This document shows, piece by piece, positions 4,971-5,257 of a stretch of DNA of 6,099 bases. The position numbers and the translations under genes are program-made. The DNA is from Actinomycetota bacterium (GTDB lineage Bacteria; Actinomycetota; Actinomycetes; Streptosporangiales; Streptosporangiaceae), in contig PMST01000107.1 in the NCBI GenBank assembly GCA_003168295.1, positions 1 through 6,099 on the forward strand, given 5' to 3'. Every line of letters begins with the position of its first letter. Within the stretch, counting starts at the first letter, position 1. The notes beneath the pieces are model-generated. The model was not told the DNA's origin. It made no database searches and saw only the letters and a list, made by a program, of their open reading frames with translations.

Positions 4971-5257
4971 AGTGATAGTCAACGATCTCCACATCGTCCG
5001 GGCCTGCATCTGACCACACAAAGCAGATCCGCCACTGCTGATTAATCCGGATGCTGTACTGCCCGGCACGGTCCCCAGTGAGCTTTTCCAGCCGGTTGCC
5101 AGGCGGGACGAGCAGGTCAGTTAAGGTCTCCGCAGCATCGAGCATCGAGCATCGCGAGCTTGCGCCAGGCGGCACGCTGCACTGGCCCGTCTAGCCTGCG
5201 TGATCGCTGCCGATGCCAGATAGCCTCGGTTTCCTTGTCCCGGAAGGAGCGCAGCAC
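4969..5257 (-). pseudogene. higB: HigB/RelE-family toxin gene, frameshifted by a 7-bp tandem repeat expansion
   Basis: HigB toxins are small RelE-fold ribosome-dependent mRNA endonucleases. From GTG 5257 the frame reads a typical HigB N-terminus (LRSFRDKETEAIWHRQRSRR, later QRAAWRKLAMLDA to residue 39). It then runs into CCGDLN and a TGA at 5119-5117. The rest of the toxin (AETLTDLLVPPGNRLEKLTG, then DRAGQYSIRINQQWRI, ending VEIVDYH) is in another frame down to TAA 4971-4969. The junction is a triple copy of a 7-bp unit at 5134-5154. Deleting one copy joins the halves into a 93-residue protein, the usual HigB length. The C-terminal half could in principle start at GTG 5175 or ATG 5145, but would lack the N-terminal helices. 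Probably inactive toxin, or an off state of a reversible switch. A sequencing or assembly error is a further possibility. Confidence 0.88.
5134..5154. repeat. Three perfect tandem copies of a 7-bp unit inside higB
   Basis: AGCATCG at 5134-5140, 5141-5147 and 5148-5154 on the + strand. Two copies are compatible with the toxin frame (coding for the M-L-D-A stretch); the third shifts it. The unit length, not a multiple of three, makes gain or loss by replication slippage a frame switch. Confidence 0.95.

What the first reader, a model, noticed from the sequence alone, without database searches (positions are those of the whole stretch)
5134..5154. HigB toxin broken by a third copy of a 7-bp tandem repeat, possibly a reversible switch
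The sequence shows two halves of a HigB protein in different frames, meeting exactly at three perfect copies of AGCATCG. Removing one copy gives a normal 93-residue toxin. A repeat unit not divisible by three can expand or contract by slipped-strand mispairing, so the toxin could be switched on and off while the antitoxin stays in frame. Simple recent inactivation is the plainer reading. Phase-variable toxin-antitoxin toxins are not a standard theme, so either outcome is informative.
Basis: partly seen in the sequence, partly recalled or inferred. Interest (0 to 1): 0.8.

Follow-up and report, generated by a model that had tools for sequence, protein, structure and literature searches.

The report
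Bacterial toxin gene broken by slippage
In this uncultured bacterium a small self-directed toxin gene is split into two reading frames by one extra copy of a seven-letter repeat, most likely a recent copying accident rather than a built-in on/off switch.

Summary
On the minus strand a HigB-family toxin lies in two frames that meet at three perfect copies of AGCATCG (5134-5154), the only perfect array of three or more copies (periods 4-15) in the window. Both pieces are nearly identical to intact HigB proteins (N piece 38 of 38 to P0007, C piece 57 of 58 to P0002), no second lesion is seen, and HigA is intact. The third copy is thus the likely sole and recent cause. A dedicated switch is not supported: in 197 distinct related loci none has a third copy or two perfect copies of this unit; 192 look undamaged upstream of and at the motif, three have stops in the N part, and two (L163, L203) have a frame change close to the same motif but no heptamer. 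The two-copy state, inferred, needs an unlikely codon combination. Three-copy units do slip in lacI and mutL (PMC3485313, PMC2955026), and a meningococcal relE/parE gene is reported inactivated through a repeat (PMC8627216), so reversion is possible and the idea has a precedent. Best reading: ordinary slippage inactivation with the antitoxin kept. No reads or same-species DNA could be reached.

The parts
5134..5154 (.). three perfect copies of AGCATCG (CGATGCT on the coding strand); two copies can be read as part of the conserved A-M-L-D-A codons, the third shifts the frame
5117..5257 (-). N piece of HigB-like toxin, GTG start, 46 aa, ends in a short shifted tail and stop
   Evidence: 38 of 38 residues after the start, up to MLDA, equal to P0007
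4969..5145 (-). C piece of HigB-like toxin in another frame, 58 aa from the ATG of MLDA
   Evidence: PF05015; 57 of 58 to P0002
4653..4958 (-). HigA antitoxin, intact, 101 aa, GTG start, GGAGGAG just upstream
   Evidence: (TIGR02607, 116.2 bits, cutoff 47.7)
5266..5300 (.). inverted repeat (two 17-nt arms, 82% complementary) just upstream of the toxin start: probable HigA operator (inference)

Best explanation
A type II higBA toxin-antitoxin operon whose toxin gene was recently inactivated by slipped-strand expansion of a 7-bp unit. The codons of the conserved A-M-L-D-A motif happened to spell two tandem copies of CGATGCT (inferred ancestral state); replication slippage added a third (inferred), shifting the frame so that translation ends after 46 codons, before most of the RelE-like toxin domain (shown from sequence). 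HigA, with its own ribosome-site-like sequence, is left intact (shown). The event is an ordinary loss-of-function mutation; it could in principle revert by the same mechanism, but is not an evolved switch.
For: Both pieces almost identical to intact relatives and no second lesion; HigA intact; junction coincides with the only perfect heptamer array of the window; in 197 distinct related loci the period-7 run at the site is at most 13 nt in 196, the exception L185 (18 nt) being in frame with a different unit and a separate TAG in its C part; the two-copy codon combination has a chance of about 0.0009 under the window's codon usage, so it is not a conserved architecture; three-copy tandem units are known slippage sites: CTGG, repeated three times in lacI (PMC3485313, passages), and three 6-bp copies in mutL (PMC2955026, outline and passages); in M. 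tuberculosis 28.8% of cases of polymorphism in type II TA genes were frameshifting indels (PMC4680722, passages).
Against: The two-copy ancestor is inferred: no DNA of the same species was reachable. Near-identity of both pieces fits a very young mutation but also a locus that flips often. Seven of the 120 listed C-piece relatives are 58-aa proteins that begin exactly at MLDAA, which could hide similar upstream breaks. Two of 197 relatives have frame changes close to the same motif (L163, L203), so the place may be break-prone for reasons other than this repeat. A repeat-inactivated relE/parE gene is reported in meningococci.
Confidence: 0.82

Rival explanations
1. Phase-variable toxin: the heptamer array is a contingency locus that turns HigB on and off while HigA is always made.
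For: Unit not divisible by three, perfect copies, exact junction, no further decay; precedents for three-copy slippage and for a relE/parE gene inactivated through a repeat in Neisseria meningitidis (PMC8627216, section 13); the same heptamer varies in copy number elsewhere: two viral contigs whose 600-nt flanks are 99.8 and 100% alike carry 6 and 8 copies of CGATGCT (L221, L223).
Against: Only three copies; unit not conserved in any of 197 related sites; no second frameshifted product of this kind among 9 protein hits; relatives that are broken show other lesions.
Confidence: 0.08
2. Assembly or sequencing artefact: the true locus has another copy number and the toxin is intact.
For: No whole genome is held for the window and it is probably a metagenome contig (inference); short tandem arrays can be misassembled.
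Against: The 21-bp array is far shorter than a usual read, so collapse or expansion by an assembler is unlikely (inference); no reads available.
Confidence: 0.08
3. The split gene is still expressed as one protein by +1 ribosomal frameshifting, or the C piece is made on its own from the ATG at 5145 as a modulator of HigA.
For: C frame is +1 relative to the N frame (read off the sequence); internal ATG exists; two relatives also change frame close to the motif (L163, L203).
Against: No ribosome-site-like sequence before the internal ATG and no shift signal recognised by eye; 195 of 197 relatives have the N part in the same frame as the C part.
Confidence: 0.02

Closest known systems
HigB-like toxin family PF05015 with HigA (TIGR02607) of type II toxin-antitoxin systems
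   Same: C piece matches PF05015, HigA matches TIGR02607, toxin gene precedes antitoxin gene, inverted repeat upstream
   Different: Toxin is split into two frames here, so no full toxin can be made by normal translation
PDB 6f8s chain B, 'Putative Killer protein' (that this is P. putida GraT is recalled)
   Same: Matches residues 6-68 of the C piece, E 1e-23
   Different: Intact 98-residue protein
NEIS0332 (relE/parE) of Neisseria meningitidis, listed as inactivated by a simple sequence repeat (PMC8627216, section 13 read)
   Same: A type II toxin-antitoxin gene put out of frame through a repeat
   Different: Seen across many isolates of a species with a survey tool; here one contig; unit and family of the repeat there not given in the section read
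mutL three-copy 6-bp repeat of Salmonella and E. coli (PMC2955026)
   Same: Three perfect tandem copies inside a coding gene, copy number said to change by slippage and alter function
   Different: There the functional gene has three copies, the unit is 6 bp (in frame), and the array is conserved in close relatives; here the array is seen in one contig only
lacI CTGG repeat hotspot (PMC3485313)
   Same: Unit not divisible by three, repeated three times; gain or loss gives a frameshift
   Different: 4-bp unit, studied as a mutation target, not as a switch

Membership tests
HigBA type II toxin-antitoxin operon | HigB-like (PF05015) toxin domain | tested here: met
   C piece 55.8 bits, cutoff 27, positions 33-91 of 91; N piece only by comparison with relatives
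HigBA type II toxin-antitoxin operon | HigA antitoxin directly downstream | tested here: met
   TIGR02607 116.2 bits, cutoff 47.7; 10 nt between C-piece stop and HigA GTG
HigBA type II toxin-antitoxin operon | one open toxin frame | tested here: not met
   Two frames meeting at the array
HigBA type II toxin-antitoxin operon | toxicity neutralised by HigA | not testable with these tools
   needs expression assays
Phase-variable gene with simple sequence repeat | perfect tandem repeat in the coding frame, unit not divisible by three | tested here: met
Phase-variable gene with simple sequence repeat | repeat kept in relatives with varying copy number | tested here: not met
   0 of 197 distinct related sites have a third copy or two perfect copies of this unit; these sites are 53-86% identical in the C piece, so variation within the species is untested
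Phase-variable gene with simple sequence repeat | mixed copy numbers within one population | not testable with these tools
   no reads held

The most novel reading that the evidence does not exclude
HigB of this lineage is a contingency toxin: the codons of the conserved A-M-L-D-A motif create a slippage site at which toxin genes are repeatedly silenced and recovered while HigA stays on; the 58-aa relatives that begin exactly at MLDAA, and perhaps the frame changes near the same motif in L163 and L203, would be further off-state or break-prone alleles.
Probability: 0.05. Interest if true: 0.7.

Novelty: new member of a known kind. Interest (0 to 1): 0.2.

Why it matters
As it stands it is a clean example of how a toxin-antitoxin toxin is lost: probably one slippage step at codons that happen to repeat, antitoxin retained. 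If copy numbers turned out to vary in the source population it would be a stochastic toxin switch. Six of my nine full-text searches bear on that idea (an open-access library that lacks most subscription journals, mostly listings seen): they gave no paper on a switching HigB, but one of them led to a relE/parE gene of Neisseria meningitidis inactivated through a repeat (PMC8627216), so the general idea is not without precedent.

Tried and rejected
Own genome: none held, so paralogues and genome-wide repeat content could not be examined. Metagenome contig scans are capped at zero, so the DNA of the closest protein relatives (P0001-P0008) and of the seven 58-aa relatives could not be read. Plasmid search: 28 records, best a Rubrobacter radiotolerans plasmid at 73.9% over 69% of the query, with an annotated full-length toxin. 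Genome sample of the order of G002, the genome of L002: 3 of 200 with a match, two with full-length open frames (L216, L217) and the third, L218, a weak match (E 6.7e-5). Promoter, terminator and RNA-family scans gave nothing. L185 looked like a second heptamer at the same site (18-nt run) but is in frame, has another unit, and its gene carries a separate TAG, so it was rejected as a second case. Exact pattern search for the three-copy array: 5 viral contigs and 1 of 396 genomes, none with a significant HigB match. Passages shown of PMC6211672 (12 of 19 places) do not describe a switching toxin.

Rows dropped before counting: of 211 matching places in 209 loci, 4 partial matches and 1 at a contig edge were left out (206 usable), then 9 duplicates by identical sequence (197 distinct). 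Of I took the 30 loci returned and 60 further places; the weaker rows were not fetched. The 209 loci are 80 from genome contigs, 38 viral, 1 plasmid and 90 from the phylum sample; L216 and L217 came later and are not in the 197 (L216 is the same place as L002).

Full report
What is there. The window carries, on the plus strand, the end of a cytochrome bd oxidase subunit I gene, subunit II, a TPP enzyme (pyruvate oxidase type) and a SnoaL-like gene. On the minus strand lies a higBA operon: an inverted repeat at 5266-5300, a HigB-like toxin, then HigA (GTG at 4958, stop ending at 4653). A protein search with the TPP enzyme finds 99-100% matches in JGI and ENA contigs (P0132-P0134) and, at 83%, a protein named as from a Streptosporangiaceae MAG (P0176); no whole genome is held for the window. 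The organism is therefore probably an uncultured actinobacterium (inference).

The break. The toxin is in two frames. The N piece runs from a GTG at 5257 and stops at 5117 after 46 codons; the C piece is open from upstream of the ATG at 5145 and stops at 4969. They meet at three perfect copies of AGCATCG, 5134-5154, the only perfect array of three or more copies with periods 4-15 in the window; 0 of 400 shuffles contain a three-copy heptamer, and 1,174,506 bases of held loci contain 2 period-7 runs of 21 nt or more.

Is anything else broken? Compared piece by piece with eight relatives, the N piece agrees at 30 to 38 of 38 residues (38 of 38 with P0007) and the C piece at 52 to 57 of 58 (57 of 58 with P0001 and P0002). 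No other stop or frame change is seen. HigA scores 116.2 bits against TIGR02607. The extra unit is the only visible lesion and should be young (inference).

Relatives. I collected DNA of HigB relatives from 80 genome contigs, 38 viral contigs, one plasmid and 90 places from a sample of 396 genomes of the phylum of a Saccharopolyspora genome (91 of 396 genomes had a match). Of 211 places, 206 were usable and 197 distinct, 53-86% identical to the window's C piece. The longest period-7 run at the motif is 13 nt or less in 196 of 197; in L185 it is 18 nt, with another unit, in frame. No relative has the third copy. In 193 of 197 the frame is open for at least 30 codons upstream. A profile of the N parts scores best in the frame of the C part in 195 of 197; the two exceptions, L163 (one of the 193) and L203, carry their N part in another frame, with the change within a few codons of the motif and no perfect tandem run longer than 6 nt around it. 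Three more (L027, L152, L212) have stops in the N part. So 192 of 197 look undamaged upstream of and at the motif; damage in the C part was not counted (L185 has a TAG there). None of these sites is from the window's species as far as can be told, so they say that the array is not an old, conserved feature, not what the same species does elsewhere. That two unrelated relatives break near the same motif is a small point for a break-prone place, but the frame check favours finding breaks there, since most of the N part must lie in one frame.

Why there. On the coding strand the unit is CGATGCT, and two copies are spelled by GCG ATG CTC GAT GCT, codons for A-M-L-D-A; A-M-L-D-A occurs in 86 of the 120 listed protein relatives. 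Under the window's codon usage this codon combination has a chance of about 0.0009. A two-copy state could seed slippage, and the third copy is most simply one slippage step (inferred). Units at three copies are known to gain or lose copies: CTGG, tandemly repeated three times in lacI (PMC3485313, passages), and a 6-bp unit in mutL, proposed as a reversible genetic switch (PMC2955026, outline and passages).

Switch or accident? For a switch: the geometry, the lack of further decay, the fact that this very heptamer varies elsewhere (L221 and L223, viral contigs with flanks 99.8% and 100% alike, have 6 and 8 copies), and a reported precedent of another kind, the meningococcal gene NEIS0332 (relE/parE) inactivated by a simple sequence repeat (PMC8627216, section 13 read). 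Against: three copies only, no conservation in relatives, no other protein with the shifted tail (0 of 9 hits of the N piece; very short products are often not called, so this is weak), and other kinds of change among those nine hits, such as internal deletions (P0122, P0126) and a fusion to a HigA-like end (P0125). One open lead: 7 of the 120 listed C-piece relatives are 58-aa proteins that begin exactly at MLDAA. Any upstream break, or a gene-caller's choice of start, would give that length; their DNA could not be read.

Setting. The operon may have arrived from elsewhere (inference): only 3 of 200 genomes of the order of G002 have a relative, against 91 of 396 in the phylum sample, and third-position GC is 0.69-0.74 in the toxin pieces against 0.91-0.92 in the three oxidase-cluster genes; HigA, at 0.87, is close to the rest. 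Loss of a toxin with the antitoxin kept is an expected fate of such a module (recalled); frameshifting indels were 28.8% of cases of TA-gene polymorphism in M. tuberculosis (PMC4680722, passages).

Verdict. Observation confirmed; recent slippage inactivation most likely (0.82); dedicated switch unlikely (0.08); artefact possible (0.08).

Noticed in passing
L219, L221, L223 (viral contigs); also L220, L222, L224: Arrays of the same heptamer CGATGCT: 4, 6 and 8 copies in L219, L221 and L223, whose flanks are related (L221 and L223 99.8 and 100% alike over 600 nt; L219 90% upstream and matching again further downstream), without a significant HigB match: natural copy-number variation of this unit.
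   Followed up: partly
P0013, P0025, P0028, P0070, P0095, P0112, P0115: Seven of the 120 listed C-piece relatives are 58-aa proteins that begin exactly at MLDAA; whether their upstream parts are broken is unknown.
   Followed up: partly
L163, L203: Two distant HigB relatives whose N part lies in another frame, the change being close to the same motif, with no heptamer repeat.
   Followed up: partly
P0122, P0125, P0126: HigB relatives with internal deletions or joined to a HigA-like end: other routes of change.
   Followed up: no
L185: Distant HigB with an 18-nt period-7 run at the same motif, in frame, and a TAG in the C part.
   Followed up: yes
window 4969-5257: Toxin pieces have third-position GC of 0.69-0.74 against 0.91-0.92 for cydA, cydB and the TPP enzyme, though HigA has 0.87.
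   Followed up: no
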